From Candidatus Dadabacteria bacterium (GTDB lineage: Bacteria > Desulfobacterota_D > UBA1144 > Nemesobacterales > Nemesobacteraceae): 64,000 nucleotides of DNA. Every line of letters starts with the position of its first letter. The first letter of the stretch is position 1. The notes under the pieces were generated by a model, which had not been told where the DNA came from, did not search any database, and saw only the letters and a list, made by a program, of their open reading frames with translations. Where the stretch lies: assembly GCA_951812735.1 (NCBI GenBank), contig OX638332.1, positions 814,732 to 878,731 of the forward strand, written 5' to 3'. This document shows, piece after piece, positions 14,900 through 35,940 of this stretch. Made by a program: the position numbers and the translations under genes.

Positions 14900-15770
14900 T
14901 TACTCGACAGTGACTCCAACCCCCTCAATTATTTTTTCAACCCTCTTCTCCCACGTGTACTCTGCCGCGTCCGAGCGTGCACCCTCCGAAATCCGCGTGC
15001 AAAGCGCTGAATCAGCAAATACTAACTCAAGCGCCCGAATAAACTTTCCTTCGTCATCAGGAGGAGTAACGACCGAATTCTCTCTCGGACTCAGTATTTC
15101 AAGAACCGACGGAACCCCGGTCGCAACAATGGGTTTTCCAGCGGCCATATACTCGAAAAGCTTAAGCGGAGAAGTAAACTTACCGGCTTCTGTCCCGTCC
15201 CTTATAGTCACCCTGGACGAATAGGGCATGACTAAAACATCTGAGGCGAGAAGGTAAGAGGGCACTTCCCGTTGTCGCACAAACCCCTCTATTTGAAATT
15301 GGCTGGTCCCTCCTGTCTCACCATCTCACGCCAAAGCACATTGTCCCGTTCCCTACCTCCGACAATGAGAAACTCAACCTCGGACATCTGCGCCGCGGCA
15401 CGCACAAGGATCTCAAGCCCCCCCTGTAAGTGTTCCCACAGTAGCACATTATTTTTCTCTCGAGCGGAAGACCAAGGTACTCCCGAAGCGAGGAAATGTC
15501 GTGTTCTCCCTCGAACACCTCCCGTTCGAAGCCGTTCGGCGCCACTATGGGGTTTTGCCCCATTATCTCGAGGCAGAAGTACATATCGTGGAGCCCCAGC
15601 GAGTTAAAGGACATCCCGAGCAGGTTCTTCGAGCGGGAAAAAGAGTCTATTGTCCTCTCGGCCGCTCAGTTAAGCGGGTGGTGGGCGTAGCAGACCGTTG
15701 GAATCCCGAAGGCCCTAGTCGCGAACCAGGCGAAGACAAAGTCCCTTGTGGGCACGAATTTGTAACCGCA
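14900..15770 (-). pseudogene. Decayed GT4 glycosyltransferase, paralogue of the 24895-26052 gene
   Basis: Fragments in several minus-strand frames follow the intact gene at 24895-26052 from about its residue 100 to the end. The C-terminal frame (14900-15280) matches closely (for example TSPLKLFEYMAAGKPIVATG and DAAEYTWEKRV). The middle (15318-15614) keeps MSFNSLGL, NGFERE and ERKIMCYCGNTYRG. The 5' part (about 15650-15770) keeps TRDFVFAWFATRAFGIPTV-like residues, then an in-frame stop after AHHPLN. At least two frameshifts and a stop are visible, and the first ~95 codons are missing. It is a dead duplicate. Confidence 0.85.
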
Positions 15771-16114
15771 AGATCGCCCCGCTTGCCCAATCTTCAATTT
15801 GTCATAAGATTATCTCTGCCAAGAATTGAGCCTAAACTAAACTTCAGGAAGTTTTTTCAAGTGATCTTAATATGAACAAAGTTCTCCTCGGCTAAATGAT
15901 AAAGAAGGCTAAACCACAACAATTATGATAGCAGATCACTCAGAAAAAGAATAGAAAATACACGAGATGTTCATATCCCCGATGGGGAAAAACTCATGGG
16001 CGCTTAATTTTCTTATGGTTGGTTGCCACATTAGATTAAATCGTACGCATCAACTTAGAAGTCAACTTCTTGTGACAGGGCTAACAAGAAACGGACTTTC
16101 TGCTGAAAAAATTC
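15771..16114 (+). other. Intergenic region upstream of HTTM cassette 1
   Basis: AT-rich, no convincing frame on either strand. The only structure seen is a 14-bp palindrome AGAAGT-CA-ACTTCT at 16057-16070, about 45 nt before the GTG start of the next gene, which could be a regulator site. No promoter is clear. Confidence 0.35.
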
Positions 16115-16738
16115 GTGAATAAAAATACAGTGAGAAAAAAACGTGTAAAAATATTTATAACGGTTCTAATAACTATCCAAGGATTGTATGTGGTTTCCCC
16201 CTTTCCTGATATTTGGCCGTTTTCAAACTACTCGATGTTCAGCAAGGCTAATCCCGTAACCGTGGCCTCGAATTTTGAGTTCTATGGTCTTACAAGCGAC
16301 GGAAAAGAAGTTTTGCTAGACAGCAAGGAAGTTTTTTTTCCTCTCGACTGCATTAGATTGAAAAAAGGGGTAACCAGAATCTTGAACCAAGAATCTTTCG
16401 TCAACAAGCAGGAAGAAAACCTTGAATCCACTCTCAAACGATTACGTTTCCTGCCGGTAGATCATAACAGCCTAAAAGAAAGCGTAAGACACCTCCTGCT
16501 TCCTTACAAAAAGAACAATGCTACTCAAGACAAGGAAAAAGAGCTTCATATATTGTTTGACTACTTGCTTTCGCAATATGAACATAACCGTGAGGTAAAA
16601 CTTCATGACGGTCCGTCGATCGTTTCTATGAATCTTTACTTAACTAGGTGGGACTGGACGGACACGCCGCCGCGACAGGTCGTTCCCGAAATCAAGTTGG
16701 TTTATTCTTCCGAATACGGGTTGTCAGAGGATGAGTAG
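16115..16738 (+). CDS. HTTM-cassette partner protein, copy 1 (single-span, unknown function)
   Basis: 207 aa from GTG 16115. A single hydrophobic segment (about 11-30) follows a basic N-terminus, so it is probably a membrane-anchored protein with an outer domain. The core motif is PFPDIWPFSNYSMFSKA just after the span, then a mixed alpha/beta domain ending in WDWTDTPPRQVVPE and EIKLVYSS. The paralogue at 30277-30888 keeps the same motifs (PLPDIWPISNYSMFSRA; KWDWTETP; LIYS). Both copies sit directly upstream of an HTTM-type gene. I do not recognise the family; co-occurrence suggests a functional pair with the HTTM protein. Confidence 0.75.
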   Translation: MNKNTVRKKRVKIFITVLITIQGLYVVSPFPDIWPFSNYSMFSKANPVTVASNFEFYGLTSDGKEVLLDSKEVFFPLDCIRLKKGVTRILNQESFVNKQEENLESTLKRLRFLPVDHNSLKESVRHLLLPYKKNNATQDKEKELHILFDYLLSQYEHNREVKLHDGPSIVSMNLYLTRWDWTDTPPRQVVPEIKLVYSSEYGLSEDE

Positions 16739-16752
16739 AAACTCAAAAAAAA

Positions 16753-17676
16753 TTGAGTTCCGCCTTTTTCAGCTTTTTCTTCAGGGACGCCTCTTGCGAA
16801 AATCTGGGAATATGCAGATTTTTGTTCTATGGAATTATCCTGTGTCTTTATCTGGAAGCGGATTTTTCCCAGTGGGCCAAGGTTCCAGATGTGCTTTGGC
16901 ATCCCATATTTATCTTCGATTTTTTCCGCATACCGGTTCTTTCGGCAGATACCCTCAGGTTCCTAGGAATTTTATGGCTGACAAGTCTCCTATTCAGCGC
17001 CGCAGGGTTCCTGACGCGTCCAAGCACTCTTTGCTCTTTTATTGTGGGTTGTTATTTGCTTGGCATGCAAAACAGCTTTGCCAAAACGCACCATACGGAA
17101 TCACTGATGCTAGTTGTGTTCTGCGTTCTGTGCTTCTCGCGTTGCGGTGACGGATTTTCACTGGATGCCATGCTTAAGAGCAGATATAAATGGTGGCCAT
17201 GCGGATCTGGCGTTAAAAGGCTGAGCCCTGAATATCACTGGCCCGTAAGACTGATCTGGGTGATGATCGCGCTTGTTTTCTGCACCGCGGGGATATCAAA
17301 GTTGAGAAACCCGGATTTTGAATGGATTACTTCTGAGTACATGGCGACTTTGTTCGTAAACAAAGGACTTACGGGAGACAGGGTCGACCCACTTATAGGG
17401 TGGCTTCCTTTCTGGCTAGGAAGCAAGGTCTGGCTATCTTCCATTCTGGCAGGCCTAGTGGTTCTGCTTGAAAGCTGTGCCCCTTTGGCTCTGGTTAACG
17501 GATATTTAAGGGCAGTCATAATACCCGGTCTGTTTTTCATGCTGTTGGGTTTCTGGGCTATTATAGGAGCACCCTTTCCCCAGTGGCTCGCGGCATTTGT
17601 CTTCTGGGTCCCTTGGGGTGAGCTCGCGGTTCGGCGCCCGGCTTTTTTCAGGAACACGCGTTCTGCTATGTTTTGA
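16753..17676 (+). CDS. HTTM (VKGC-like) membrane protein, copy 1
   Basis: Multi-span membrane protein of about 300 aa with the HTTM/vitamin K-dependent carboxylase-like pattern: NLGICRFLFYG at the start, a first span, HPIFIFDFF, several helices, NSFAKTHHTE, SRCGDGFSLD, a helix ending AGISKLRNPDFEW, and a C-terminal helix pair. The paralogue is 30881-31789. Oddity: in the paralogue the start ATG overlaps the partner stop, but here the ATG at that position (16731) is out of frame because of an A8 run (16745-16752). Removing one A gives an N-terminus of exactly the paralogue's length. As sequenced, translation would need TTG 16753. Confidence 0.75.
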   Translation: MSSAFFSFFFRDASCENLGICRFLFYGIILCLYLEADFSQWAKVPDVLWHPIFIFDFFRIPVLSADTLRFLGILWLTSLLFSAAGFLTRPSTLCSFIVGCYLLGMQNSFAKTHHTESLMLVVFCVLCFSRCGDGFSLDAMLKSRYKWWPCGSGVKRLSPEYHWPVRLIWVMIALVFCTAGISKLRNPDFEWITSEYMATLFVNKGLTGDRVDPLIGWLPFWLGSKVWLSSILAGLVVLLESCAPLALVNGYLRAVIIPGLFFMLLGFWAIIGAPFPQWLAAFVFWVPWGELAVRRPAFFRNTRSAMF

Positions 17677-17710
17677 GAGCTCATTTCGCCAAATTTAAAA
17701 GATGACTTTG
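17674..17710 (+). repeat. TTTGCCA repeat array, copy 1
   Basis: TGAGAGCTCATTTCGCCAAAT begins exactly at the HTTM stop codon region, and a second GCCAAA follows 23 nt after the first. The block is shared with 21886-21929. It resembles the multi-site ends of a transposable element, with no transposase present. Confidence 0.5.
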
Positions 17711-17939
17711 CCAAAGCTCTGCATCTCGTAATTCCCTGTCATTATTGTATATTTCCGGCGAAATCGAGCTGACCGAGGCTAAAATTAGGACATAGCGCTC
17801 CTATAGCGATTTTAGCGATTTTCAAGCGCTTGTGACATTAAATTGCCCGGAAAACCAGAGGAAAACCCCGAAAAAACACAGTAATAGCAGGGGATTAAGC
17901 GAAAATAACACGAGCGCTATATAATCGCTAGTTTTATTT

Positions 17940-18086
17940 CCGGGAGACATTTCCGGGAGACATTTTTCAGCCCCGCATTTTCCGGGAGACATTTACGAAT
18001 AATTGAAGAATATCAGGTGGTTGCTATAGGGTTTCGCTGAGGTTTTCCGGGAGACATTTCTTTTTTTTTATTTTCGGGAGACATTT
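17940..18086 (+). repeat. Five direct copies of CCGGGAGACATTT
   Basis: Copies at 17940-17952, 17953-17965, 17982-17994, 18047-18059 and 18074-18086 (the last has T for the first C). All are in the same orientation, with spacings of 13, 29, 65 and 27 nt. The flank 17795-17940 also repeats TAGCGATTTT and AGCGCT. No gene overlaps. The layout resembles transposase-binding sites at an element end, and no transposase is visible. Together with 17674-17710 this accounts for the gap between HTTM copy 1 and the next gene. Confidence 0.75.
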
Positions 18087-18102
18087 CCTGGGTTTAAGTC
18101 AA

Positions 18103-18441
18103 TTACTTAGATTCCCCCTGATTTTTATTGCATTGATTAAGAGCCTTTGTAAAGCCGCTCAAATCGAATTCTGCTATTTGTTGGTTTCCTTTTGTCATAA
18201 ACAACTCCAACTCCAGACGCATTGTTCTTCCTTTTTTCATTGCAGAAATTAATTTACTGATAGAATGCCTAATGTGCATACCATCATTGTTGTTTTTCCA
18301 AACTCCGAATTCAATATCAGAAGGAGGGCTCTCGTCAAATTTAACTCGTCCAAACTGAATTGAGTCGCAGGAATAGCTTCCACAACTCACATGATCCGTG
18401 TGGAAGGAATGAAAAAAAGCATAGAGATGATGAAGTGGCAT
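18103..18441 (-). CDS. Hypothetical protein, possibly truncated at its N-terminus
   Basis: 112 aa, not recognised. The C-terminal half looks genuinely coding: IQFGRVKFDESPPSDIEFGVW, a long basic helix (ISKLISAMKKGRTM) and a FDLSGFTKALNQC end. A strand-helix-FDxxGFxxAL..C ending recalls small envelope proteins of the IalB/VasI kind, but this is weak. The N-terminus (HHLYAFFHSFHTDH) is not a normal signal or start, and an upstream part may have been lost. It sits just beside the GGGAGACATTT repeats. Confidence 0.4.
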   Translation of the reverse strand: MPLHHLYAFFHSFHTDHVSCGSYSCDSIQFGRVKFDESPPSDIEFGVWKNNNDGMHIRHSISKLISAMKKGRTMRLELELFMTKGNQQIAEFDLSGFTKALNQCNKNQGESK

Positions 18442-18609
18442 ATTGGAGGTCCCGTCGCTGTCGGGTTAGTTATTGTCGGGCTATAGCGGTAAGGTCTCTG
18501 CGTACTCCCAGTCGGTTAAATCTTCATAATTCAAAGGCCGTTCGGCAATTTGATTTTCCCCGTTATACTAACAAAAGCTTTAGACAGGTAATTAGGTGAG
18601 GCTGCTTGA

Positions 18610-18792
18610 ATGAAGGAAAAGCCAGAAGAGAAAAATCCTTACGAGAGAGTTTTTGACGACGCTCAACGCAGTCTGAAGAAAACAGGGATATCTGTAGACC
18701 GTCTGGATAGAGTTCCGGATATTAAACACGATTCAGCGACGATTCCTTTTCCTTACGGCGGAGAACCCAGCTCTGCTCCCTGGAAGAAATAA
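18610..18792 (+). CDS. Small hydrophilic protein, candidate partner/antitoxin of the PIN protein
   Basis: 60 aa, highly charged, no recognised domain. An N-terminal acidic/basic helix (EEKNPYERVFDDAQRSLKK) is followed by a Pro/Gly tail with IPFPYGGEPSSAPWKK. Its stop overlaps the ATG of the PIN-domain gene (TAATG at 18790-18794), a layout typical of antitoxin-toxin pairs. Antitoxin function is an inference from size, order and coupling. Confidence 0.6.
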   Translation: MKEKPEEKNPYERVFDDAQRSLKKTGISVDRLDRVPDIKHDSATIPFPYGGEPSSAPWKK

Positions 18793-19931
18793 TGCCGAAC
18801 CTGACTGAAGAAAAAATCAAAGCTAAAATTGCAGATGGGTCGATCTTCGCCATGTCTGTCGATACGGAGATATTCGAAAGATATCAGCTCAATCTCAATT
18901 CCCCAGTTCTGAAGAAACTCGGCCAGTTTGCGAACGGGCTAATACAGGTACTGCTTTCAGAAATCGTCGTTAACGAAGTTAAAAATCATATCGCGCTTGC
19001 CGCAAAGGAATCCCAGAGCAATCTAAAAAAAGCGATCAAGGAGCAGGGCAAGCGGTGGAGTCGAACATTGGACTTAGCGGCGTTACCGGATGAACTTGCG
19101 CTGTCGAATGATCCAAGAGAAGCGGCAGAATCCTACGTGACGGACTATCTCGCCGCCATTGGCGCTGAGGTTGTTCCCGCGAGTGGTAAGTTTGATGTGT
19201 CAGGAGAATTGCTGCGACGATACTTCTCGAAAGAGCCACCATTTGAGAACAATGATCGAAAGAAGCACGAGTTCCCCGACGGCTTCGCGTTGCTTTCTCT
19301 GGAAATCGTTGCCAAGCCAAGGCGAGGGCTAGTTCTTTGCGTTAGCAGGGACGAAGGATGGAAAAGATTCGCGAAGCACTCGGATTTTCTTGTCTGCGAA
19401 TCTGAACTTGATCTGGTGCTCTCGTATTTCAATGACTCCGGTCGAACTACGGCGGATCAAACCATGTCTCGGTGGAAAGGCGGAGCAGCTTCCGAACTCG
19501 TTCAGGAAGTCGATCGGGCGTTTGAGTATCAGCTTGGTGATACAGATTTCTATCCGACGGGATCAGCGCCACTGTTTTTTGAAAGCAGACCGATCGGCGC
19601 CGCCGTGCAATGGGTAGATCTTGAATCGGCAAGTAATCCCGTGGTTATCGACACCAACGACGAAACAGTTACCTTCACTGTAAATATCGAGGCAGTGGTA
19701 GAGTTCGAAGCGAATTTCAGGTTTTACGTAAGAGATTCTATCGACAAAGGCCCCTTTTTATTAAGCGCAGAAAACTTTTTAACTAAGGACAGGGTCGAAT
19801 TTCAGCTAGCAATCACCGTTTCTCGAGATCTTGATCCTGAACCCGAGGTCGTTGACGTTGAGATCTTTAAGAAGCACATCAAAGTGGATTTCGGGGAAGT
19901 TGAGCCATTTTCTGGTTTAGAAGGAGACTGA
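18792..19931 (+). CDS. PIN-domain (DUF4935-like) putative ribonuclease
   Basis: 379 aa. Residues about 15-200 form a PIN-like fold with acidic residues at the expected places: Asp24 in MSVDTEIF, Glu57/Glu62 in LLSEIVVNEVKNHI, Asp163 in HEFPDGFALL and Asp187 in SRDEGW. PIN enzymes are Mg2+-dependent RNases and the larger DUF4935 type is often encoded in defence or mobile contexts. The C-terminal 170 residues are beta-rich and unrecognised. It overlaps the preceding small gene by one base. Its stop codon lies inside repeat A (19917-20125), so the 3' end is a repeat boundary. Confidence 0.7.
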   Translation: MPNLTEEKIKAKIADGSIFAMSVDTEIFERYQLNLNSPVLKKLGQFANGLIQVLLSEIVVNEVKNHIALAAKESQSNLKKAIKEQGKRWSRTLDLAALPDELALSNDPREAAESYVTDYLAAIGAEVVPASGKFDVSGELLRRYFSKEPPFENNDRKKHEFPDGFALLSLEIVAKPRRGLVLCVSRDEGWKRFAKHSDFLVCESELDLVLSYFNDSGRTTADQTMSRWKGGAASELVQEVDRAFEYQLGDTDFYPTGSAPLFFESRPIGAAVQWVDLESASNPVVIDTNDETVTFTVNIEAVVEFEANFRFYVRDSIDKGPFLLSAENFLTKDRVEFQLAITVSRDLDPEPEVVDVEIFKKHIKVDFGEVEPFSGLEGD

Positions 19932-20125
19932 GAAGGGTTTTAAACCTGATTTAAAGCTCGTTTAGAGTTCCCATAAAAGAGCCTTAAACAGCCCTCAACT
20001 ACCCATTAAAACTTAAGTCAACTACTTAAATTATCGGCTTTTTTAGTTAACATAATATGCCCATTTCTGCGAATTTTGTGGCCATTTCATGTCATAAATT
20101 TGGCCATTTCATGTCGCGCGTTATA
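19917..20125 (+). repeat. Direct repeat A (209 bp) flanking the collagen-like gene
   Basis: Nearly the same as 21991-22198 and in the same orientation. It begins with TTAGAAGGAG at the PIN gene stop and ends with three 22-nt units, each starting GCC(C)ATTTC, at about 20062-20125. The copy difference is roughly one in eight bases. Resembles the end of a mobile element with multiple protein-binding sites. Together with the start of the next gene it explains the 19932-20217 gap. Confidence 0.85.
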
Positions 20126-20217
20126 ATAGCAATACCGGATCAATTTCAGCAGATGCTCTATTGAGTTTCAGTTTTCCGCCAAAGAATGCAATCCTCCAGA
20201 ACAACTTCACAGTCTCA

Positions 20218-21726
<1,509 letters not shown>

Positions 21727-21885
21727 AATTTCCTCCAGATAATCCTTTATAAATTCAGAAGATAAAACTCCTGCCCCCTATCGTAAAAAAAGAATATCGG
21801 CTTTTTTTAATCTGCAACCACCACCCCAGATTCTATTTTCCCTCCCCCCGACTTGTCAAGACATTTTTTCTCGCTGCTGGTATAG

Positions 21886-21929
21886 TTTGAGAGCTCATTT
21901 TGCCAAATGAATAAGACAGTTTTGCCACT
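21886..21929 (+). repeat. TTTGCCA repeat array, copy 2
   Basis: TTTGAGAGCTCATTTTGCCAAAT is followed 22 nt later by a second TTTTGCCA. It matches 17674-17710 and lies just upstream of repeat B. Two copies of the array at the two sides of the 17.7-22 kb block suggest an element boundary. Confidence 0.55.
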
Positions 21930-21990
21930 AAGAACTGACCTGGCTATCTGTCACACCTGCTTTGATGCAGGCTTAACTAAAATACATATA

Positions 21991-22198
21991 TTAGAAGGAG
22001 GTTGAGAGGGGTTTTAAACCCGATTTAAAGCCCGTCGGAGCTTCTATAAAAGAGCCTTAAACAGCCATTAAATACCCATTAAAACTTAAGAGAATTACTT
22101 AATCTATCGGCTTTTTTAGTTAACATAATATGCCCATTTCTGCGAATTTTGTGGCAATTTCATGTTATAAATTTGGCCATTTCATGTCGCGCGTTATA
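21991..22198 (+). repeat. Direct repeat B (208 bp)
   Basis: Second copy of 19917-20125, same orientation, starting TTAGAAGGAG and ending TTATA, with the same three 22-nt GCC(C)ATTTC units. The 21727-22370 gap otherwise contains AT-rich sequence, the TTTGCCA array and no gene. Confidence 0.85.
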
Positions 22199-22370
22199 TC
22201 TGCACCATGATGAGAAACGCGTTCTATCGATCATGTTTTTGGCTAACAAAACCGGATCGGGTATTTTCTAGTGTTCGTTTTCAGGACGCACTCGCGGAGG
22301 CTTAAATTCTCGGATATAGAAAAAACCGCCATAGGCGTCCGCTTATTCATCTCTGCGGAGATTTGAATAA

Positions 22371-22790
22371 ATGAAAAAGTTTTTTCTACTCCTGCTGTTT
22401 TTTCTTGCGTTTTCAGCTTCCCCTTACGCTAAGGAAGAAGTTTACAAGACATACACCGATATCGGAAAAGTCGAAAAACCCTCATTTGCCATCTCAGAAG
22501 TTATTTCTAACGGCGAGAAGTTCCACAGGAAGATGATAGCCCTTGAAGGGCGCGTAGGAAAACTTGAATTCAAGGAAATGGCGAACGGGCGGAAATTTAC
22601 CCTGTTTCAGTTCTTCGAAGACGATCCCGAAAAAAGAATAAATGTTTACGCAAGGGGGTTCGTGGAAGGCATTGAGAAAGGAAGCAAGATAAGGATTTGG
22701 GGGTTTTACAGCAGGCACAAAAGGTATTTTCTGATAAAACGCAAGAATATCATGAAAGCGAACAAGATTCAGTTTCTTTGCAACCAATGA
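22371..22790 (+). CDS. Small exported protein, OB-fold-like
   Basis: 139 aa with a clear signal peptide (1-20, ends SPYA). The mature part has alternating strands: KMIALEGRVGKLEF, RKFTLFQFFED, INVYARGF, GSKIRIWGFY, RYFLIKRKNI. This looks like a small OB-fold (tRNA_anti/YgiW-type) domain, which binds nucleic acid or oligosaccharide in other families. Not recognised as a named family. It stands alone next to repeat B, convergent with the asparagine synthase gene. Confidence 0.65.
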   Translation: MKKFFLLLLFFLAFSASPYAKEEVYKTYTDIGKVEKPSFAISEVISNGEKFHRKMIALEGRVGKLEFKEMANGRKFTLFQFFEDDPEKRINVYARGFVEGIEKGSKIRIWGFYSRHKRYFLIKRKNIMKANKIQFLCNQ

Positions 22791-22900
22791 ATCGCAAACA
22801 TTTTTTGTCAGGTGAAATCTTGTGCGAAGCAAAAAACCCGCGCAAGGCGCCAGACCACTATCCTCGGAATTCCCCGCTTCCCCTTATTTCCCCGCCCTTT

Positions 22901-24814
22901 TTAATGCCACCTTTCATACCACATCTGGAACATTAGCAGGTTCCATATCCGGTCAGGCTTAATGGAGGAGTCGTTGTAGAATTTGTCGGTCCACCGGGAA
23001 ACTTCCTCCACGTTAAAAAATCCGCTTTTCCTTATTTCGGCGGCGCTCAGGTGCTCCATGACCAAAGGTTTCAGCTTGCCTCTAAGCCATGAATCCACCG
23101 GACCGACGAATCCGGTCTTGGGACGATCGTAGAGTTCTTCGGGTATATGGCGGGAAAGCACTTTCTTCAAAAAATATTTACTCTCTCCGTTTCTGTACTT
23201 GAGATCAAGAGGGAGCCTCGATGCGAACCGAACGACCCTGTGATCGAGCAACGGTTCCCTCGCCTCAAGTCCCGTGCTCATCGAAGCCCTGTCAACCTTC
23301 GTTAATATGTTGTCCGGAAGCCACACGTTAAAGTCCGCGTAAAGCATCTGCGTCATGAGCTTCCCATTTTCTATGGAGGCGAAATCCGCGTTAAAAGTCT
23401 CATCGAGGGTATCCACGGGTTCCTTGAAAAGACCCGGGAAATCCTCGGGGGCCCAAGCGCTCCATTTGCCCCTGTACATCCGCGCCATGTCTTTTTCCAG
23501 GATTCCGAGCATGACCTCGCGAATCTTTCCGTAGTTCCTAGCAAGCGAGGACAGTCCCAGGGTTTTTCCCAGGGATTCAACCCTAGAAACTCCCAAGCCT
23601 CCAAGCGCGGCTTTAAGTCCGTTTCTTACAACCCGGGGAGCTTTTCCGATCATATCGGCCGAGCGGGCAAGTCTCGAGTAGTGGTTATAACCGCAGAAAA
23701 GCTCATCCCCTCCATCGCCCGACATCACTACCTTTACGTGCTCGCGGGCAAGTCTTGACACTATGCATGTGGGTATCGAGGAGTCATCCCCGAAAGGCTC
23801 GTCGTATATCGACGGAAGTTCGGGAACCATTCTCACCGCTTCTTCCTCGGACACGTAGAATTCCGTATGCTCCGTCCCGAGATGTTCGGCAAGCTTCTTA
23901 GCCCAGACGGCCTCGTTGTATTTCTCTTCCTCGAACCCTATGGTAAAGGTCCGTATCGGCGTCGAAACGTTTTTTTGAAGCAACGTGGCCACCACGCTTG
24001 AATCTATTCCCCCGCTCAAAAAAATTCCCACGGGCACATCTGAAACCAGCCTGTGCCTGAGAGAGTCAACCATTATCTCCTCAAACTTCTCGCAGGTCTC
24101 TTCCTCGGAAAAGTCATAGGGTTCCATGTTAAAAGACTCCGTTATGTCCCAGTACCTGTGTTTTTTTACCTCCCCGCCGCGAACACGGAGATAGCATCCG
24201 GGCTCAAGCTTGAAGGTATTCTCGAAAATGGTATAGGGGCTTCTTACGTAGTCATATTTTAGGAAAAGAAGCAGGGCGTCCGCGCTTATTCTCTTGCTGA
24301 AACCCGGATGCTTCATTATGGCCTTAAGTTCGGAACCGAAGAGAAAAAGTCCGTTCTCCCTGTAGTAGTAAAGAGGCTTTATTCCCACGCGGTCTCTCGC
24401 TAGGTAAAGCTTGTTGCGTCTTCCGTCCCAGATAGCCAGGGCGAACATTCCTATGAACCTTTGAAGACACTCAATTCCCCACTGCTCATAAGATTTGACA
24501 AGCACCTCGGTATCGCAGTCGGTTCTGAAAACATGGCCCTTGGAGCGCAGTTCCTCTCGGATTTCCTTGTAGTTGTATATCTCCCCGTTGTAACTCACCT
24601 GTATTCTCCGGTCGTCGCTTGCCATGGGCTGTCGGCCCCTTTCAGAGAGATCTATGATCGAGAGTCTTGAGTGGCCCAGGCCCACGCATCTGCTTTCATC
24701 AACATAGGTGCCGGAATCATCCGGGCCCCTGTGAGAAAGAGTGTCGGTCATCGACAGAAGAACCGAGGGATCAACAACCGCATTTGGACTGTAAATTCCG
24801 GTTATACCGCACAT
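22901..24814 (-). CDS. asnB: Glutamine-hydrolysing asparagine synthase-like protein
   Basis: Cytoplasmic amidotransferase, 637 aa from the ATG at 24812-24814, so the catalytic Cys is residue 2 (MCGITGIY). The glutaminase part (1-~210) has HRGPDDSG and NGEIYNY. The synthetase part (~240 on) has the PP-loop SGGIDSS and SGDGGDELFCGYNHY. Frames extending further upstream add an unrelated leader and are not used. In glycan clusters such asnB paralogues often amidate sugar acids instead of making asparagine for growth. It ends a three-gene unit with the nucleotidyltransferase and a glycosyltransferase, which supports that reading. Confidence 0.93.
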   Translation of the reverse strand: MCGITGIYSPNAVVDPSVLLSMTDTLSHRGPDDSGTYVDESRCVGLGHSRLSIIDLSERGRQPMASDDRRIQVSYNGEIYNYKEIREELRSKGHVFRTDCDTEVLVKSYEQWGIECLQRFIGMFALAIWDGRRNKLYLARDRVGIKPLYYYRENGLFLFGSELKAIMKHPGFSKRISADALLLFLKYDYVRSPYTIFENTFKLEPGCYLRVRGGEVKKHRYWDITESFNMEPYDFSEEETCEKFEEIMVDSLRHRLVSDVPVGIFLSGGIDSSVVATLLQKNVSTPIRTFTIGFEEEKYNEAVWAKKLAEHLGTEHTEFYVSEEEAVRMVPELPSIYDEPFGDDSSIPTCIVSRLAREHVKVVMSGDGGDELFCGYNHYSRLARSADMIGKAPRVVRNGLKAALGGLGVSRVESLGKTLGLSSLARNYGKIREVMLGILEKDMARMYRGKWSAWAPEDFPGLFKEPVDTLDETFNADFASIENGKLMTQMLYADFNVWLPDNILTKVDRASMSTGLEAREPLLDHRVVRFASRLPLDLKYRNGESKYFLKKVLSRHIPEELYDRPKTGFVGPVDSWLRGKLKPLVMEHLSAAEIRKSGFFNVEEVSRWTDKFYNDSSIKPDRIWNLLMFQMWYERWH

Positions 24815-24894
24815 CGCATTTCCATTTTTCCTCTTGCGACACTTATAGCACGAAAAGCTAGGGTAGGATACATAAAACCGGACCGGTCGGGAAA

Positions 24895-26052
24895 TTACGG
24901 GGTGGCGATTCCCATGCCGTCGATTATTTTCCGGACTCTCTTCTCCCACGTGTACTCAGCCGCGTCCAAGCGGGCCCTTTGCGAAATCTGTTCGCGAAGC
25001 AGCGGATCTTCAAGCACAAGCCGAAGCATCCGAAAGAATTCCTCCTCGTCATCGGGAGGGGCAACGACAGAATTTTCCCCCGGCCTAAGCACCTCAAGAA
25101 CCGACGGAACGCCGGTAGCGACAATGGGCTTTGCGGCAGCCATGTATTCAAAGAGTTTGAGAGGGCTTGTAAACTCGCCCGCTTCCGTACCATCCTCTAT
25201 AGTCATCCCGGACAAATAGGGCATGACCAAAACGTCGGACGCCTGAAGGTAAGCAGACACTTCCCGTTGCGCAACGAACCCCTCCATCCTGAAATTTTCC
25301 GTTCCAGCTTCCCTAGCCATTTCGCGCCAAAACAGATTGTCCCACTCCCTGCCCCCGATGACCAGAAACAAGACGTCAGGCATCCGCTCCGCGGCCCGGA
25401 CCAGAAGCTCAACCCCCCTGCCCTTGTAGGTGTTTCCGCAGTAACAAACTATTTTTCTATCAAGAGGAAGTCCGAGACGCATCCTGAGCGAAGACACTTC
25501 GCACCCACCTTTAAACGCCTTCCGGTCAAAGCCGTTATGGGCGACAACAGATTTTTGCCCGGCTATCCCCAAGCGGGAGTATGTTCTGCGAAGCCCGTCC
25601 GAGTTAAAAGACATACCCAGCAGGTTCGGAGAACGGGAGAAAGAGCCTATTATTTTTTCGGCTATCCAGTTCACCGGAGGGTGGTGAGCATCATAGACGG
25701 TGGGAACCTCGAAAACCTTAGTTGAAAAATAGGCGAAAATAAGATCTCTCGTAAGTATAAAATCGTAGTTTTTTCTTTTCCTCCGCGCGTAAAACGCGCT
25801 CAGCAGTCCATGTAAGGGCCGACGCGCGGGTCCAGTGGCAAGGGGGATTGAAGTTACGCGGAAATCGGTTGTGATGCTGTAATATTCAAACAGTCTTTCT
25901 TTTTTTACCCAACCGGGAAGAAGGCACTCTATTTCAATTCCCAAGTTCGCCATCGCCTGACACATCTTGAGCATGTGAATGGCACTTGCCCCTTTAGTAA
26001 AAAGCGGATGACTTCCCACGTAAAGCACCCGGAGTCCTTTATATTTTTTCAT
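24895..26052 (-). CDS. GT4-family glycosyltransferase
   Basis: 385 aa, GT-B fold. The N-terminal domain has GSHPLFTKGASAIHMLKM. The C-terminal UDP-sugar-binding domain has YCGNTYKGRGVELL, SDVLVMPYL and EFTSPLKLFEYMAAAKPIV with the E(x7)E-type signature, then VAPPDDEEEF. It is intact, unlike the decayed paralogue at 14900-15770. It lies between the nucleotidyltransferase (50 nt) and asnB (80 nt), so it is probably part of one surface-glycan transcript. Acceptor and donor unknown. Confidence 0.9.
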   Translation of the reverse strand: MKKYKGLRVLYVGSHPLFTKGASAIHMLKMCQAMANLGIEIECLLPGWVKKERLFEYYSITTDFRVTSIPLATGPARRPLHGLLSAFYARRKRKNYDFILTRDLIFAYFSTKVFEVPTVYDAHHPPVNWIAEKIIGSFSRSPNLLGMSFNSDGLRRTYSRLGIAGQKSVVAHNGFDRKAFKGGCEVSSLRMRLGLPLDRKIVCYCGNTYKGRGVELLVRAAERMPDVLFLVIGGREWDNLFWREMAREAGTENFRMEGFVAQREVSAYLQASDVLVMPYLSGMTIEDGTEAGEFTSPLKLFEYMAAAKPIVATGVPSVLEVLRPGENSVVAPPDDEEEFFRMLRLVLEDPLLREQISQRARLDAAEYTWEKRVRKIIDGMGIATP

Positions 26053-26102
26053 GCAGGAAGATCCTCATCATTCTACTTACAGAAACAAAAGATGGTGGCG
26101 GG

Positions 26103-26885
26103 TTATTCGGAAGAATAAACAATCCTCAGAAGGCTTGGCACGCGGTATTCCTTTTTCAAGAACCTGTCAGCCTGCTTCCTCGCCCTGAAAAGATCAAGTG
26201 GACAGTCTACGTCCATCCAGTAAAGCTCACCTATATCGAGAGGCTTGATTTTATACCCCTTGTTTATAAGCCTGTGTATTGAGGAAATGTACCATTTCCC
26301 CTCGGCACCGGGATTCCTCATTTCCTCCTCAACCGCTCTTTTGAGAAGCTCTACTCCAGTATCCCTGAACACCCTTATGCCGACCGATTCAGCGGAGGTC
26401 TCGGCGTTTGATATCTCCTTGCTGATCTTAGTGATCCTGGTGTCGTCAACAACAACTTTCATGTCTTCCCTTTCGTACCGGGGCCGCTTCTTTATGGGAA
26501 GACATATCTTTTCATCCCTTACAGAGAGCGCCTTGTCCAAAACGCCTATCTCGTATACATCATCTCCGTTCATAACCACTAAGTCTTCATCGAATTCGCT
26601 CCGGGCTATCCAGAGAGACACAAGGCTGTTTGTGGATTGGTAGAAGGGATTGTAAAGGGTATTGATTCTCATCCCCAGGCCATCGTAGCTTCTTAGGAAA
26701 TCCTCCACCCTCTCAAAACCGAAACCCACGACGATCACAACTTCGTTTATGCCGCAGTCCCTTATAAGGTTTATCTGGTGTTCGAGTATGGATATGTTCC
26801 CAATATCAAGAAGACACTTGGGCTTGTCGTGAGTGTAAGGATATAGCCTGGTTCCCCTACCCGCTGCGAGTATTATAGCTTTCAT
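26103..26885 (-). CDS. Sugar-phosphate / choline-phosphate-type nucleotidyltransferase
   Basis: 260 aa with the NTP-transferase signature MKAIILAAGRGTRLYPYT, then KPKCLLDIG, and an acidic metal site (LVVMNGDDVYE). This fold makes NDP-sugars or CDP-choline from NTP and a sugar- or alcohol-phosphate. The short C-terminus and LDIGN/SILEHQ pattern lean to LicC-like or glucose-1-phosphate transferases; substrate undecided. First gene of the unit with the GT and asnB genes, 50 nt upstream of the GT. Confidence 0.88.
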   Translation of the reverse strand: MKAIILAAGRGTRLYPYTHDKPKCLLDIGNISILEHQINLIRDCGINEVVIVVGFGFERVEDFLRSYDGLGMRINTLYNPFYQSTNSLVSLWIARSEFDEDLVVMNGDDVYEIGVLDKALSVRDEKICLPIKKRPRYEREDMKVVVDDTRITKISKEISNAETSAESVGIRVFRDTGVELLKRAVEEEMRNPGAEGKWYISSIHRLINKGYKIKPLDIGELYWMDVDCPLDLFRARKQADRFLKKEYRVPSLLRIVYSSE

Positions 26886-27157
26886 AAATCAGATTTTTTA
26901 AATAGATACCTGCTCGCTCCTAAGAATTGCGAAATACAAGCTATGTTTTCCAACAAAGGAGGAGGATCAACACCTTAATTTCGCAGGATTTTTAGTATAA
27001 CTACACATATAAGTTATGTCACCACGCTAGGAACCCTTCAAGCAACTCAAGATTTGATTTGCCAACCCCTCGCGAGGCTCCTTAAATTTAGAAGGCCTGC
27101 CACGCGTCATTCCAAGACCCAAGAAAACAGCCCAAGCTATCAGTTACAATTAGCCGC

Positions 27158-28372
27158 ATGAATCCGCTGCTTTCAGTCAACATTTCATACAGGGCCATAA
27201 AAAGCAACAAGGTAAGATCGTTTCTCACTACCTTGGGAATAATCATAGGTGTCGCGGCCGTGATCTCGCTTGTCTCCATAACCGGCGGGGCTAAAAATAT
27301 GATAGAGGGGCAGCTTGCATCCCTGGGATCTAACTCTCTTATAGTAAGAAGCGGTAAAATCACAAAGAGCGGAAAACCGCTTCTTGCTAGCAACCTAAAA
27401 CCGCTTACCAACAATGACGTTGAAGCAATAGGAGAGCTTGAAGCAGTAAAATACGTCTCGGCGATAGCCAACACAACCGCTAACATTGTTTCGGGAAACA
27501 GAAACGTTTTCACGGCAGTGATAGGAACTGGAGAGGATTTTATATTCATAAACGATTGGTTCCCAGCTAGGGGGACGTTCTTCAACGAGCTTGACGTAAG
27601 GGAAGCATCTCTTGTGTGCGTACTTGGAAAAACCGTCAAGGAAAATTTGTTCGGGAGTCAAAATCCTATAGGAAAAAACCTAAGGATCGGCAAGTACACT
27701 TACAACGTTATTGGGGTGATGTCCTCGATCGGACCTACGCCAAGCGGAAGAGATCAGGACGACATAGTGTTACTTCCCTACACTTCCATTCAGAAAAGAC
27801 TTCTCGGCACAAAATCGCTTAACAGAATCACTATTTTCGTAGATCCCGCCTATGATCTAGGATATGCTCAGGCGGAAGTGGAAAAAGTTCTGCGCAGACA
27901 GCACGGGATCAAGAATGAAATGGAAGACGATTTTTCTGTAAGAGCCCAGCAGAACCAGATAGAAACCATAAAAAACGTCTCAAAAATCCTCTCTATACTT
28001 CTCGGAAGCATAGCCTCGATTTCGCTTGTTGTCGGAGGAATCGGAATAATGAATATAATGCTGGTTTCGGTAGGGGAAAGGACGAGAGAGATAGGAATCA
28101 GGCTAGCCGTCGGGGCTAAAGAGAAAAACATACTGATTCAGTTTCTTATAGAATCCATTTTGCTCTCCCTTGTCGGCGGGGTAATTGGAACGGCAGCCGG
28201 CATACTGATCTCGAAGGTGGCCTCAGCCCTTACGGGCTGGCCTACCCAGATATCCATGCTGTCTATAATAGTGGCTTTTCTGTTCTCAGCACTTGTGGGA
28301 ATCGTCTTCGGCATGTATCCAGCGAAAAAAGCGGCAGCGCTCAATCCAATAGAAGCTCTGAGATATGAATGA
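27158..28372 (+). CDS. MacB-like ABC transporter permease (FtsX domain)
   Basis: 404 aa: an N-terminal span (SFLTTLGIIIGVAAVISLVS), a ~220-residue periplasmic MacB_PCD-type domain (GKTVKENLFGSQNPIGK, DDIVLLPYTS), then three C-terminal spans with SLVVGGIGIMNIMLVSVGER and REIGIRLAVGA. This matches the permease half of MacB/LolC-like exporters. No ABC ATPase or membrane-fusion protein is encoded beside it, so its partner must lie elsewhere. Perhaps a lipid or peptide exporter; substrate unknown. Confidence 0.88.
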   Translation: MNPLLSVNISYRAIKSNKVRSFLTTLGIIIGVAAVISLVSITGGAKNMIEGQLASLGSNSLIVRSGKITKSGKPLLASNLKPLTNNDVEAIGELEAVKYVSAIANTTANIVSGNRNVFTAVIGTGEDFIFINDWFPARGTFFNELDVREASLVCVLGKTVKENLFGSQNPIGKNLRIGKYTYNVIGVMSSIGPTPSGRDQDDIVLLPYTSIQKRLLGTKSLNRITIFVDPAYDLGYAQAEVEKVLRRQHGIKNEMEDDFSVRAQQNQIETIKNVSKILSILLGSIASISLVVGGIGIMNIMLVSVGERTREIGIRLAVGAKEKNILIQFLIESILLSLVGGVIGTAAGILISKVASALTGWPTQISMLSIIVAFLFSALVGIVFGMYPAKKAAALNPIEALRYE

Positions 28373-28609
28373 GGAAACTAACTGTTGTCCGAAAAAATTC
28401 TTTTCATCTCCTCGAATGTTCTAGCCAGAAAAGAGGACTGAAAATTCCCTTGACGAGAGTATGAAGATATTTCCCTCGTCCTGCATACCGATTGTGAAAA
28501 ACCTGAAGTTTCTCAATCACCAGTCATTATCGTACATCTAAAATGAGAAACACTGGAGATTCCTACCTTTTGGTCACGTAACCGGAATTTTACAGTGGCA
28601 ATACGCAGA

Positions 28610-29746
28610 CTATATTTCGGTGAACAGTTTTTCATATCTGGAAATCATTTTATCTATTGAGAAGTTTTCCGATCTTTTTTTTGCTTCTTTCTCCAAGCTT
28701 TCCTTTAACTCCTGGTTTTCCAGTGTTTTTATAATTGCGTCGGCCATTTTTTGCGGGTTTTTGACTGGAACTAGGATTCCGTTCTTGTGGTCCTCGATGA
28801 TTTCGTCAGCTCCATGTTCATGGTTCGTAGATATTATCGGTTTCCCCAGAGCAAGAGCTTCAAGTATGACATTTGAGAATCCTTCATATAACGAAGAGCA
28901 CACGAAAATATCGGCTTTTGCTATATACGGAAAAGGATTTGCCACTGCACCTAGAAAATCTATTTTATCTTTTATTAGAAGTTTTTCTGAGAAACTCTGA
29001 AGCTCTTTTTTCTTTCCCCCGTTTCCGATAATTATGAGTCGTACGGTTTTCGTCCTGTTTACTATTTCAAGAGCTTGCAATAGATAGGAGAATCCTTTCT
29101 GAGATTTAAACGATCCTACAGCAATTATTAGGGGGATCTCAGTTCCAAACCACTTATGATTCTTTTCTTTTTTCGATCTTTCTATTACGTTCTGAATGTC
29201 GATCCCGTTATAAATTGTCTTGACTTCTGATCTTAGCTTAAAAACCTCTTTTGTTTCTAGCGCAAGGCTTTGCGAATTGGCCACTACTTTATTCGACAGC
29301 CGCACCCCAAATTTCCTCAAATAGAAACGCAGGGGGATTTTCTCCATAGAAAATGTCTGTTTCAGGTTGTTCCCTTCACCGGAAATTGTTTTAAATCTGA
29401 GCATTCGACCTATTATAGCCATGGGGATCTTGGGCCAGTGGCGGCTGTAGAGGATATCCGGTCTTTCGAACAGAGCAGTTTTAAAAAAAATGATTATTCC
29501 GTAACCAACCCAGAGGATTTTAGACTTTTTCAAGAGCGGAATAAATGAGGGGGAAAATATTTTTATGCTTTTATCAAGGGAGTTTTTAAGTTCTCCTTCA
29601 TCGTAAAACAAAAAGACAGACACCTCATACCCTCTCCGGTGGAGACCATTTGCGATATTGATTGTCTGCCTTTGAGCTCCTCCAGCACTCAAGTTAGGGG
29701 AAGCAAAAAGGATTTTTTTCGTGCGAAACTTACTTCCCTTGCTCAT
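28610..29746 (-). CDS. GT4-family glycosyltransferase
   Basis: 378 aa with a GGAQRQTINIANGL donor-domain start, then the C-terminal domain with VGSFKSQKGFSYLLQAL, ICSSLYEGFSNVILEALALG and GADEIIEDHKNGILVPV. A paralogue of the 31990-33147 protein with strong C-terminal similarity. It is divergent from HTTM cassette 2, just as the decayed GT is divergent from cassette 1. A shared ~90-nt leader lies upstream (29789-29880). Confidence 0.92.
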   Translation of the reverse strand: MSKGSKFRTKKILFASPNLSAGGAQRQTINIANGLHRRGYEVSVFLFYDEGELKNSLDKSIKIFSPSFIPLLKKSKILWVGYGIIIFFKTALFERPDILYSRHWPKIPMAIIGRMLRFKTISGEGNNLKQTFSMEKIPLRFYLRKFGVRLSNKVVANSQSLALETKEVFKLRSEVKTIYNGIDIQNVIERSKKEKNHKWFGTEIPLIIAVGSFKSQKGFSYLLQALEIVNRTKTVRLIIIGNGGKKKELQSFSEKLLIKDKIDFLGAVANPFPYIAKADIFVCSSLYEGFSNVILEALALGKPIISTNHEHGADEIIEDHKNGILVPVKNPQKMADAIIKTLENQELKESLEKEAKKRSENFSIDKMISRYEKLFTEI

Positions 29747-29788
29747 ATCTCAGAATATCCCGTATGTTACGCCGTGGTCTTAAACCCC

Positions 29789-29880
29789 AAACGCAACTTT
29801 TGAGTTAGGCAAACTAAAATGACAAATCGGCAGTCTTAACAACTTTCTTTCAGCCACAATATCAAAAGGAGCGTTTGAAC
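29789..29880. repeat. Diverged ~90-nt repeat, copy 1
   Basis: Begins AACGCAACTTTTGA..TAGG and ends CAATATCAAAAGGAGCGTTTGAA. A second copy, about two-thirds identical, is at 35941-36030. Both lie just upstream of a leftward gene of the glycan cluster, so they may be a conserved control region or a decayed mobile end. Confidence 0.5.
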
Positions 29881-30006
29881 CAAAAACCAAAGCGCCCCCA
29901 CTCAAAGATACCAGATCGCTATTTTCTTAAAAGCGAAATTCAACCAGACTCTGACAGCAAAAAGGTTAGGTGCATAAATCCACCACTAGCCGGAAACTGA
30001 AAAATC

Positions 30007-30037
30007 TTAACAGGTGGGCAACTGGTTCTGCTATAAT
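30007..30037 (+). promoter_or_regulatory. Possible promoter for HTTM cassette 2
   Basis: An extended -10 TGCTATAAT (30029-30037) is preceded by TTAACA (30007-30012) at a 19-nt spacing. The spacing is long and the gene start is 240 nt away, so this is tentative. Confidence 0.3.
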
Positions 30038-30276
30038 GGATAGTATAAGTTATGAGGGAATCTATCGACTAAGTAAATGCCTTGGATTCAAAAAAGTGAA
30101 TTAGGTATTCTTTAGAGTTGATCTGCCTGTTGCGGTTGAACGAGAAAATATGATACGAAAAAATTACCGGAAAAAAAGGGGCATCTCTGTGTTCCGACAA
30201 ACAGGCATATTTTGCGAATACTCCCCGGTTAGTCCGAAGCGGATATGGGAGGATCCCTTCACATCTCAGATGCCAG

Positions 30277-30888
30277 ATGAAAAACAGCGCTGGAAAGCGA
30301 GCAAAGGTATTTATAGTTATCTTGGTAGTTATACAGGGCCTGTACGTAATTTTCCCTCTTCCTGACATCTGGCCCATTTCGAACTACTCGATGTTCAGCA
30401 GGGCAAAGGTGAAAACTGTCGCATCCAAGCTCGAAATTAGAGGCGTAACCAAAGATGGTGACGAACTGTTGTTAAACGCTAATGATCATTTCCGTCCTCT
30501 CAGCAACTCTAGAATTAACAAAGGAATTAGTCGCATTCTGAACGACGTGGGGTACAAAAGGAAGAACGAAAAAAGAGTAGATCGTATCATTGGATATTTG
30601 GATTTTCTTCCCATAAACAAAACAATGCTGAAAGAAGGAATACAGGACAAACTTCTCTACGACAACGAAATTAAAAACAAAAAAGAGGCGATAGACAAGC
30701 TTTTCAGCTACTTGCTCGCTCAATATAAACTAAACGCGGAAACGTCCGGTGCCGACCCTGTTATAGGAATATACGAGCTTAGACTCTACAGGGTTAAATG
30801 GGATTGGACGGAAACTCCGATTCACAACGTAATTCAGAATGAAAAGCTGATTTATTCAACTACTGCAGGTCTGTTTCAGTATGAGTAG
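30277..30888 (+). CDS. HTTM-cassette partner protein, copy 2
   Basis: 203 aa with an N-terminal basic segment and a membrane span (about 10-28), then the same core as copy 1: PLPDIWPISNYSMFSRA, an inner helical region and a KWDWTETPIHNV block. It is the intact-looking copy, and its last codons overlap the HTTM start by 8 nt (ATGAGTAG). Family not recognised. The tight overlap suggests it works in a 1:1 pair with the HTTM protein. Confidence 0.75.
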   Translation: MKNSAGKRAKVFIVILVVIQGLYVIFPLPDIWPISNYSMFSRAKVKTVASKLEIRGVTKDGDELLLNANDHFRPLSNSRINKGISRILNDVGYKRKNEKRVDRIIGYLDFLPINKTMLKEGIQDKLLYDNEIKNKKEAIDKLFSYLLAQYKLNAETSGADPVIGIYELRLYRVKWDWTETPIHNVIQNEKLIYSTTAGLFQYE

Positions 30889-31789
30889 TTTTTACGAAAA
30901 CTCCAGAGCAGAGATTAACAAATTCTTTTTCCATCCCGTGACACCGTATAACCTGGGTGTGTCAAGATTTCTGTATTACGGAACAATCTTTTTCCTATAT
31001 GTCGGAGAAGATTTTTCGGAATGGGGAAAAGTTCCTGAAGTTATATGGCATCCCATATTTTTGTTTGATTTTTTTTCAATACCGGTCTTGGGCCCAGAAG
31101 TTCTAGGGATTCTTGGTAAAATCTGGATCATTTCTATCCTGTTCAGTTCCATTGGTTTTCTAACCCGTTTGAATACAGTTCTGGCGTTTCTGATCGGATG
31201 TTATTTGCTGGGAATTGTGAATAGCTTCGCCAAAACTAATCACACAGAAACGCTAATGCTTCTTATTTTTGGCATAATGTCTCTTTCCAGATGCGGAGAC
31301 GGATTCTCGGTTCACAATCTGTACAGGAATCCTAATAAAAGAAATCAGCAGAATGTCGAATATTGCTGGCCCACCAGTTTGGTCTGCGTTATGTTCACTC
31401 TTATGTTTTGTGCCGCAGGATTTTCAAAGCTAAGAAATTCGGGGTTCGAGTGGTTTACCTCAGACTTTTTATCGTCTCTTATTATAAACCGTGGATTTAC
31501 GTCCAGCGGATCAAATCCGTATATTGAGTGGATTCCGTTCTGGGTAGGTAGCAACAAGGGATTGAGTCATATTATAGCAGGTCTGGCATTCTTCCTTGAA
31601 ATATTCGCACCTCTGGCGTTATTTAACAAATACTTTAGGGCCGTAATCTTACCATCTCTATTTTTCATGCTGATAGGTTTCTGGATGGTACTGGAAATTC
31701 CTTTTCCGCAGGTTATGGCAAGTTTTGTCTTCTGGATACCTTGGGACAGACTTATTAGACCTACAAGAGGTAGTTTGATAGCAGATTGA
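30881..31789 (+). CDS. HTTM (VKGC-like) membrane protein, copy 2
   Basis: 302 aa, multi-span. Shares NLGVSRFLYYG, HPIFLFDFF, NSFAKTNHTE, SRCGDGFSVH, AGFSKLRNSGFEW, EWIPFWVGS and a PFPQVMASFVFWIPW end with copy 1, at roughly half identity by eye. HTTM proteins resemble vitamin K-dependent gamma-carboxylase and are scattered among bacteria; their enzyme role is mostly untested. The start ATG is translationally coupled to the partner gene. Cytoplasmic or lumenal catalytic residues cannot be assigned with confidence. Confidence 0.82.
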   Translation: MSSFYENSRAEINKFFFHPVTPYNLGVSRFLYYGTIFFLYVGEDFSEWGKVPEVIWHPIFLFDFFSIPVLGPEVLGILGKIWIISILFSSIGFLTRLNTVLAFLIGCYLLGIVNSFAKTNHTETLMLLIFGIMSLSRCGDGFSVHNLYRNPNKRNQQNVEYCWPTSLVCVMFTLMFCAAGFSKLRNSGFEWFTSDFLSSLIINRGFTSSGSNPYIEWIPFWVGSNKGLSHIIAGLAFFLEIFAPLALFNKYFRAVILPSLFFMLIGFWMVLEIPFPQVMASFVFWIPWDRLIRPTRGSLIAD

Positions 31790-31989
31790 AAAGAGTAAGA
31801 AAAAGACGTAAAAGACAGTACAGATATTCCTGTGTGGACAGGAAGAGAGCTCCGGCTTCTCGAAATGAATTCATGGGGAGGACTCACTAGGAATTTTGAT
31901 ATTTTCTAAGTGTGGTGTTGGGGGGTCAGGCGGAGGAAACGGTTATTAGGCGCGTTTTACAGATGTTCGGCTAAAATTAGAGTCTCGAA

Positions 31990-35851: not shown

Positions 35852-35940
35852 CGCAAACTCTCCAGTGAATATTTCCGTGAATCTTGTTCCCCGAAAATAC
35901 CACTTAGCAAATACTAACTCCCTCCGTGCTTTCAAGTTTG

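What the first reader, a model, noticed from the sequence alone, without database searches (positions are those of the whole stretch)
16115..17676. Two-gene HTTM cassette of unknown function, copy 1
An HTTM (vitamin K carboxylase-like) integral protein is coupled to a 200-aa single-span protein with an unfamiliar, well conserved PDIWPxSNYSMFS motif. The same pair is repeated at 30277-31789. A conserved, co-duplicated pair inside a glycan cluster may be a membrane-bound modification system not yet described.
Basis: partly seen in the sequence, partly recalled or inferred. Interest (0 to 1): 0.75.

Follow-up and report, generated by a model that had tools for sequence, protein, structure and literature searches.

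The report
Split vitamin-K-carboxylase-like membrane enzyme
Two neighbouring bacterial genes appear to be the two halves of one membrane enzyme related to the human vitamin-K-dependent carboxylase; one half is an undescribed domain that, wherever we looked, never occurs without the other and sits in sugar-, peptide- and radical-chemistry gene clusters.

Summary
In detail: two copies of a two-gene cassette (small single-span protein, then HTTM protein) lie in a low-GC glycan island of a Candidatus Dadabacteria genome (44% and 53% identity between copies; both genes under purifying selection). The small protein matches no Pfam or NCBIfam family. It is a recurrent, undescribed module, not a local curiosity. 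Natural fusions in Dadabacteria, Myxococcales and another phylum carry it at the C-terminus of the HTTM protein, sometimes after a DCC1-like thiol-disulfide domain. In 294 genomes searched with the small-domain profile alone, all 17 hits were fused to or next to an HTTM gene, and the two parts co-diverge. The HTTM part is remotely homologous to human GGCX: GGCX is the only PDB match by profile (E 3e-10) and by predicted fold. The catalytic base Lys218 and His160 are conserved in both window copies. Best reading: a split, VKGC-like, quinol-dependent membrane enzyme whose substrate-side module is a separate subunit. It travels with glycan, radical-SAM and NRPS clusters, so it probably tailors exported molecules. 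Reaction and substrate are inferred. Sequence homology of the small module to GGCX's luminal domain was tested and not found. Copy 1 has a one-base A8 frameshift at the HTTM 5' end.

The parts
16115..16738 (+). small single-span partner protein, copy 1 (207 aa): one TM helix, then a juxtamembrane motif and an extracytoplasmic beta-helix-beta domain
   Evidence: 44% identical to copy 2; dN/dS 0.10-0.16 vs sister species; no Pfam or NCBIfam family
16205..16243 (+). juxtamembrane motif PDIWPFSNYSMFS, copy 1
   Evidence: aligned with WPF..Y.MF-type motifs of homologues and fusions
16745..16752 (+). A8 run that puts the conserved HTTM start ATG (16731) out of frame in copy 1
   Evidence: DNA alignment with L005, L006, L007 and copy 2
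16753..17676 (+). HTTM (VKGC-like) membrane protein, copy 1, from a TTG start; ancestral ATG at 16731
   Evidence: profile match among HTTM relatives; family profile match to GGCX
17092..17094 (+). His codon at the GGCX H160 position (NSFAKTHHTE), copy 1
17299..17301 (+). Lys codon at the GGCX K218 (active base) position (AGISKLR), copy 1
   Evidence: role of K218 from PMC12589487
30277..30888 (+). small single-span partner protein, copy 2 (203 aa)
   Evidence: AF2 model pLDDT 83, pTM 0.65
30361..30399 (+). juxtamembrane motif PDIWPISNYSMFS, copy 2
30881..31789 (+). HTTM (VKGC-like) membrane protein, copy 2 (302 aa), start overlapping the small gene
   Evidence: family profile match to GGCX
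31241..31243 (+). His codon at the GGCX H160 position (NSFAKTNHTE), copy 2
31427..31429 (+). Lys codon at the GGCX K218 position (AGFSKLR), copy 2

Best explanation
Each cassette encodes the two halves of one membrane enzyme of the HTTM / vitamin-K-dependent carboxylase (VKGC) superfamily. The HTTM subunit is the membrane core. By analogy with GGCX it would bind a reduced quinone (menaquinol) in the membrane, the conserved Lys would deprotonate it, and reaction with O2 would make a strong base that activates a substrate at the outer face; the conserved His would sit in the substrate pocket. The small subunit is a detached C-terminal module: one TM helix, a juxtamembrane [WF]P..Y.M[FY] segment and an extracytoplasmic beta-helix-beta domain that would cap the pocket and present the substrate. 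DCC1-like thiol-disulfide proteins, fused or adjacent in some relatives, would recycle or reduce the quinone or a disulfide. In the window the likely substrate is a surface glycan or its lipid-linked precursor, or an envelope protein made with it. Shown: genetic coupling, fusion, HTTM homology, Lys/His conservation, fold of a fused relative. Inferred: cofactor, chemistry, substrate, direct contact between the subunits.
For: Fusions HTTM+module (L052) and HTTM+DCC1-like+module (L053, L054, L063), found; DCC1-like confirmed by Pfam for L053 and L054. In 294 genomes searched with the small-module profile alone, 17 hits, all fused to or directly beside an HTTM ORF. Mantel correlation of module and HTTM distances 0.77 in 17 non-redundant pairs, 0 of 5000 permutations as high. 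HTTM profile against PDB hits only GGCX: E 3e-7, and 3e-10 with the fusion profile. Alignment puts the conserved Lys on GGCX K218 (20 of 21 sequences) and a His on H160 (17 of 21). AF2 model of the L052 fusion, pLDDT 90 and pTM 0.90; its 16 Foldseek PDB matches with E <= 0.001 are all GGCX. K218 and H160 roles from PMC12589487. Own genome encodes a VKOR and a DCC1-like protein elsewhere.
Against: No detectable sequence similarity between the small module and GGCX residues 372-509 (rank within shuffled decoys), and no PDB fold match for the small protein model alone. The TM-score of 0.54-0.56 for the fusion could come from the HTTM part alone. GGCX K217 is not conserved (Ser in the window). No gamma-carboxylation substrate or propeptide was identified. 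Copy 1 has a 5' frameshift, so it may be impaired. HTTM homologues might use the fold for something other than quinol chemistry.
Confidence: 0.5

Rival explanations
1. Maturation or export pair working like SdpA-SdpB of Bacillus: the HTTM protein and its single-span partner jointly mature a secreted peptide or protein, and the HTTM fold serves as a scaffold rather than as a quinol enzyme.
For: Same gene architecture (small protein plus multi-span HTTM-like protein) as sdpAB/yitPO, which belong to operons that produce a secreted toxin (PMC6818787; the HTTM relation of SdpB is general knowledge). One A6 member matches the SdpB model weakly (TIGR04033, E 0.0034). HTTM genes are also assumed to act in linaridin peptide maturation (PMC9927463).
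Against: SdpA (PF17418) and SdpB (TIGR04033) models find nothing in this genome; the small module matches no SdpA model. Catalytic Lys and His are conserved, which a pure scaffold would not need. Contexts are glycan, rSAM and NRPS clusters.
Confidence: 0.2
2. Quinol-linked thiol redox pair of the DoxX/DoxD (thiosulfate:quinone oxidoreductase) kind: the complex passes electrons between a thiol or sulfur compound and the quinone pool, with DCC1-like proteins as the thiol partner, and does not modify a biosynthetic product.
For: Sub-threshold DoxX match for copy 1 (E 0.0078) and weak DoxD/DoxX matches in 4 of 21 family members each; DCC1-like fusion or adjacency.
Against: The only PDB homologue is GGCX. 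Most pairs, the window's included, have no DCC1-like gene next door. Biosynthetic-cluster contexts point to a product.
Confidence: 0.15
3. True gamma-carboxylase: the pair carboxylates Glu residues of an exported protein, exactly as GGCX does.
For: K218 and H160 equivalents conserved; GGCX-like HTTM fold in a fused relative.
Against: No recognisable propeptide-binding domain; K217 absent; no Glu-rich substrate gene recognised beside the pairs; NRPS and glycan contexts.
Confidence: 0.08

Closest known systems
Human vitamin-K-dependent gamma-carboxylase (GGCX, VKGC)
   Same: Homologous HTTM membrane domain (E 3e-10), same predicted fold in a fused relative, active-base Lys218 and His160 conserved; a further TM helix and extracytoplasmic domain follow the HTTM in the fused relatives.
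   Different: The C-terminal module is a separate gene in the window, is smaller, and has no detectable sequence similarity to the GGCX linker/propeptide-binding domain; K217 is absent; no Gla substrate known.
SdpA-SdpB (YitP-YitO) of Bacillus subtilis
   Same: Two-gene architecture: small protein followed by a multi-span HTTM-like protein (operon in PMC6818787; the HTTM relation of SdpB is from general knowledge).
   Different: Neither curated SdpA nor SdpB model recognises the window genes; no sdpC-like precursor was recognised next to the pair.
Linaridin-cluster HTTM proteins (e.g. CrdG)
   Same: HTTM protein inside a biosynthetic cluster, assumed maturation role (PMC9927463).
   Different: Peptide cluster; a small partner with this motif is not described there.
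HTTM - DCC1-like (DUF393) gene pairs and fusions
   Same: Occur in this family: L053, L054, L055 fused by Pfam, L063, L037, L041 fused by eye; L016, L043, L057 adjacent.
   Different: The window pairs have no DCC1-like neighbour; the genome's only detected copy is over 340 kb away.

Membership tests
HTTM / VKGC superfamily (PF05090) | sequence membership of the multi-span domain | tested here: met
   Single window sequences miss PF05090, but their profile finds L052 at E 1.9e-32; L052 matches PF05090 above its cut-off (43.3 vs 27.7 bits); family profile vs GGCX E 3e-10
HTTM / VKGC superfamily (PF05090) | GGCX-like fold | tested here: met
   Fused relative L052: AF2 pLDDT 90, all 16 significant PDB matches are GGCX; the window HTTM itself was not modelled
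Vitamin-K-dependent gamma-carboxylase (VKGC) | active-base Lys (GGCX K218) | tested here: met
   Present in both window copies and 20 of 21 sequences, aligned to K218
Vitamin-K-dependent gamma-carboxylase (VKGC) | His160 of the substrate pocket | tested here: met
   Both window copies, 17 of 21 sequences
Vitamin-K-dependent gamma-carboxylase (VKGC) | Lys217 | tested here: not met
   Ser in both window copies (AGISKLR, AGFSKLR)
Vitamin-K-dependent gamma-carboxylase (VKGC) | luminal propeptide-binding domain | tested here: inconclusive
   Small module is the positional equivalent in fusions, but no sequence similarity and no PDB match alone
Vitamin-K-dependent gamma-carboxylase (VKGC) | Glu carboxylation coupled to vitamin K epoxidation | not testable with these tools
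   needs enzyme assay
SdpA/SdpB peptide-toxin maturation | match to SdpA PF17418 and SdpB TIGR04033 | tested here: not met
   No match in own genome; best family member E 0.0034
SdpA/SdpB peptide-toxin maturation | adjacent SdpC-type precursor | not tested
   Neighbouring ORFs are glycosyltransferases and others; short precursor genes were not searched for
DoxX/DoxD thiosulfate:quinone oxidoreductase | match above the DoxX cut-off | tested here: not met
   17.3 bits vs cut-off 23.6
Known family for the small protein | any Pfam or NCBIfam match | tested here: not met
   26 members scanned, only scattered chance-level matches

The most novel reading that the evidence does not exclude
A split VKGC-like enzyme family, with an undescribed obligate substrate module, that uses quinol-plus-O2 base chemistry to modify non-protein exported products (surface glycans, non-ribosomal peptides), extending vitamin-K-type chemistry beyond Glu residues of proteins.
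Probability: 0.2. Interest if true: 0.9.

Novelty: new variant of a known kind. Interest (0 to 1): 0.62.

Why it matters
Bacterial HTTM proteins are widespread but, apart from guesses, few have an assigned reaction. Finding that one large group has an obligate partner module, keeps the catalytic Lys and His of the human vitamin-K carboxylase, and sits in glycan, radical-SAM and NRPS clusters gives a concrete, testable hypothesis for what these proteins do. It also defines a domain that neither Pfam nor NCBIfam contains, and offers a minimal two-part bacterial model for the membrane chemistry behind blood-clotting factor activation.

Tried and rejected
Viral contigs searched three times with the small protein, its alignment and the HTTM: no relatives. 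Plasmids: only one remote HTTM relative, in Novosphingobium. SdpA and SdpB models: no match. Small-protein model against PDB: no match. Sequence test of the idea that the motif equals the GGCX linker (YSWDMMVHS): score inside shuffled decoys by HMMER and hhalign, so I do not claim that homology. The GGCX 372-509 letters used there were recalled and then checked against the PDB sequence. Matches L020, L021 and L023-L026 (E 0.003-0.034), and the second match in G384 (L029, E 0.03), contain no HTTM ORF and are treated as chance. A plan to predict the two chains as a complex was not possible with the tool; a natural fusion (L052) was modelled instead. Recent tandem duplication rejected: copies are only 44-53% identical and copy 1 is closer to sister-species genes.

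Full report
What is there. The window lies in a 1.59 Mb single-contig genome. Named relatives that carry the same genes are Candidatus Dadabacteria. Two cassettes run on the plus strand. Copy 1: small protein 16115-16738 and HTTM 16753-17676. Copy 2: small protein 30277-30888 and HTTM 30881-31789. No further copies exist in the genome. Small proteins are 44% identical, HTTMs 53%. Sister species have copy-1-like pairs (67-81% identity), with dN/dS 0.09-0.16 for both genes, so both have been under purifying selection. Copy 2 is an old divergent paralog. In copy 1 the conserved ATG overlapping the small gene is out of frame because of an A8 run; the intact frame begins at a TTG. Either it starts there, or the run is an error, a slippage site or early decay. 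A glycosyltransferase pseudogene lies directly upstream, so decay is plausible.

Neighbourhood. The 16-36 kb stretch has 41-48% GC, with the lowest values at 28-36 kb, against 51-54% over most of the rest of the window. It holds several glycosyltransferases, a Wzx-type flippase, an asparagine-synthase-like gene, a nucleotidyltransferase and a TupA-like ATP-grasp protein: a surface-glycan island. Pairs in sister species also sit beside glycosyltransferase or flippase genes.

The small protein is a module of HTTM enzymes. No Pfam or NCBIfam family recognises it or its relatives. Searching with the HTTM brought loci from Gemmatimonadales, Entotheonella, Acidobacteriota, Sumerlaeia, Myxococcales and others; a small single-span protein with a W/F/Y-P...M-F/Y-type juxtamembrane motif directly precedes the HTTM in most of them. 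In other genomes the module is fused to the HTTM C-terminus: L052 (459 aa), and with a DCC1-like domain between, L053, L054 and L063. A mixed alignment places every recognised motif of the module rows and fusions in one column. As an unbiased test, the module profile alone was run over 294 genomes of another phylum: 17 hits, every one fused to or directly beside an HTTM ORF. HTTMs are commoner (77 of those genomes), so the dependence is one-way: the module needs HTTM. The two parts co-diverge, Mantel r 0.90 in 23 pairs and 0.77 in 17 non-redundant pairs, 0 of 5000 permutations as high (shared species history contributes to this).

What the HTTM is. The family profile has a single kind of homologue in the PDB, human GGCX: E 3e-7, or 3e-10 with fusions. 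The alignment places the family's conserved Lys (AAGxSKL) on GGCX K218 and a His (FAKTxH) on H160; I checked the numbering offset of 31 by hand from the printed alignment. Lys is kept in 20 of 21 and His in 17 of 21 sequences, both in both window copies. In GGCX K218 deprotonates vitamin K hydroquinone and H160 helps hold the substrate Glu (PMC12589487). The AF2 model of the L052 fusion is confident (pLDDT 90, pTM 0.90) and its significant PDB fold matches are 16 GGCX entries and nothing else. This chain runs through L052; the window HTTM itself was not modelled.

What is not shown. The tempting step, that the small module is GGCX's ninth helix, linker and propeptide-binding lobe on a separate chain, is only positional: GGCX 372-509 scores no better than shuffled sequence against the module profile, and the window small-protein model (pLDDT 83) finds no PDB fold. 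GGCX K217 is missing. No substrate was identified and the interaction of the subunits was not tested directly.

Function. The pair appears in different biosynthetic settings: glycan islands (window; Gemmatimonadales L031), beside radical-SAM, HPr-kinase-like and nucleotidyltransferase genes in Acidobacteriota (L035, L037, L041), and between NRPS modules in Sumerlaeia L038 and next to NRPS modules in Acidobacteria L040. A general membrane tailoring step for exported products fits this better than a glycan-only enzyme. I judge the obligate two-part HTTM complex about 0.9 likely, VKGC-like quinol chemistry about 0.5, and the glycan as substrate in this genome about 0.3. The genome has a VKOR and a DCC1-like protein elsewhere, so a quinone-thiol cycle is possible.

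Comparison. It belongs to the HTTM/VKGC superfamily by sequence profile, fold and catalytic Lys/His; it is not shown to be a gamma-carboxylase. It resembles SdpA-SdpB in gene layout but fails both curated models. The literature searched has no description of this partner module; bacterial HTTM proteins are mentioned only as putative maturation factors, as in linaridin clusters (PMC9927463). Novelty is therefore a new variant of a known kind, with one undescribed domain.

Noticed in passing
14912-15764 (-): Decayed glycosyltransferase pseudogene, paralog of the intact gene at 24895-26052, with frameshifts and stops, directly upstream of copy 1.
   Followed up: partly
16745-16752: A8 homopolymer that shifts the 5' end of the copy-1 HTTM gene relative to relatives: sequencing error, slippage site or decay.
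   Followed up: partly
16000-36000: Low-GC island (0.41-0.48 against about 0.51-0.54 over most of the rest of the window), suggesting horizontal gain of the glycan region.
   Followed up: no
20218-21726 (-): Pentapeptide-repeat plus collagen-like repeat protein with a signal-peptide-like start, odd for a 1.6 Mb genome.
   Followed up: no
L038:5495-6831 and L040:5480-6834: The same pair sits with NRPS modules and an Ldh_2 reductase in two phyla: a possible NRPS tailoring system.
   Followed up: partly
L035, L037, L041 (upstream of the pair): Recurrent cassette of radical SAM, HPr-kinase-like and NTP_transf_5 genes with the pair in Acidobacteriota; HTTM of L037 and L041 carries a DCC-like C-terminal part.
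   Followed up: partly
L042, L044, L058: HTTM genes preceded by other small or medium proteins with a different juxtamembrane sequence (e.g. YRFFAPEPGP, SWALFAQ), not recognised by the module profile: perhaps further partner classes.
   Followed up: no
L060, L077, L080, L090: HTTM proteins of about 490-555 aa with a different conserved C-terminal domain, unlike the module here.
   Followed up: no
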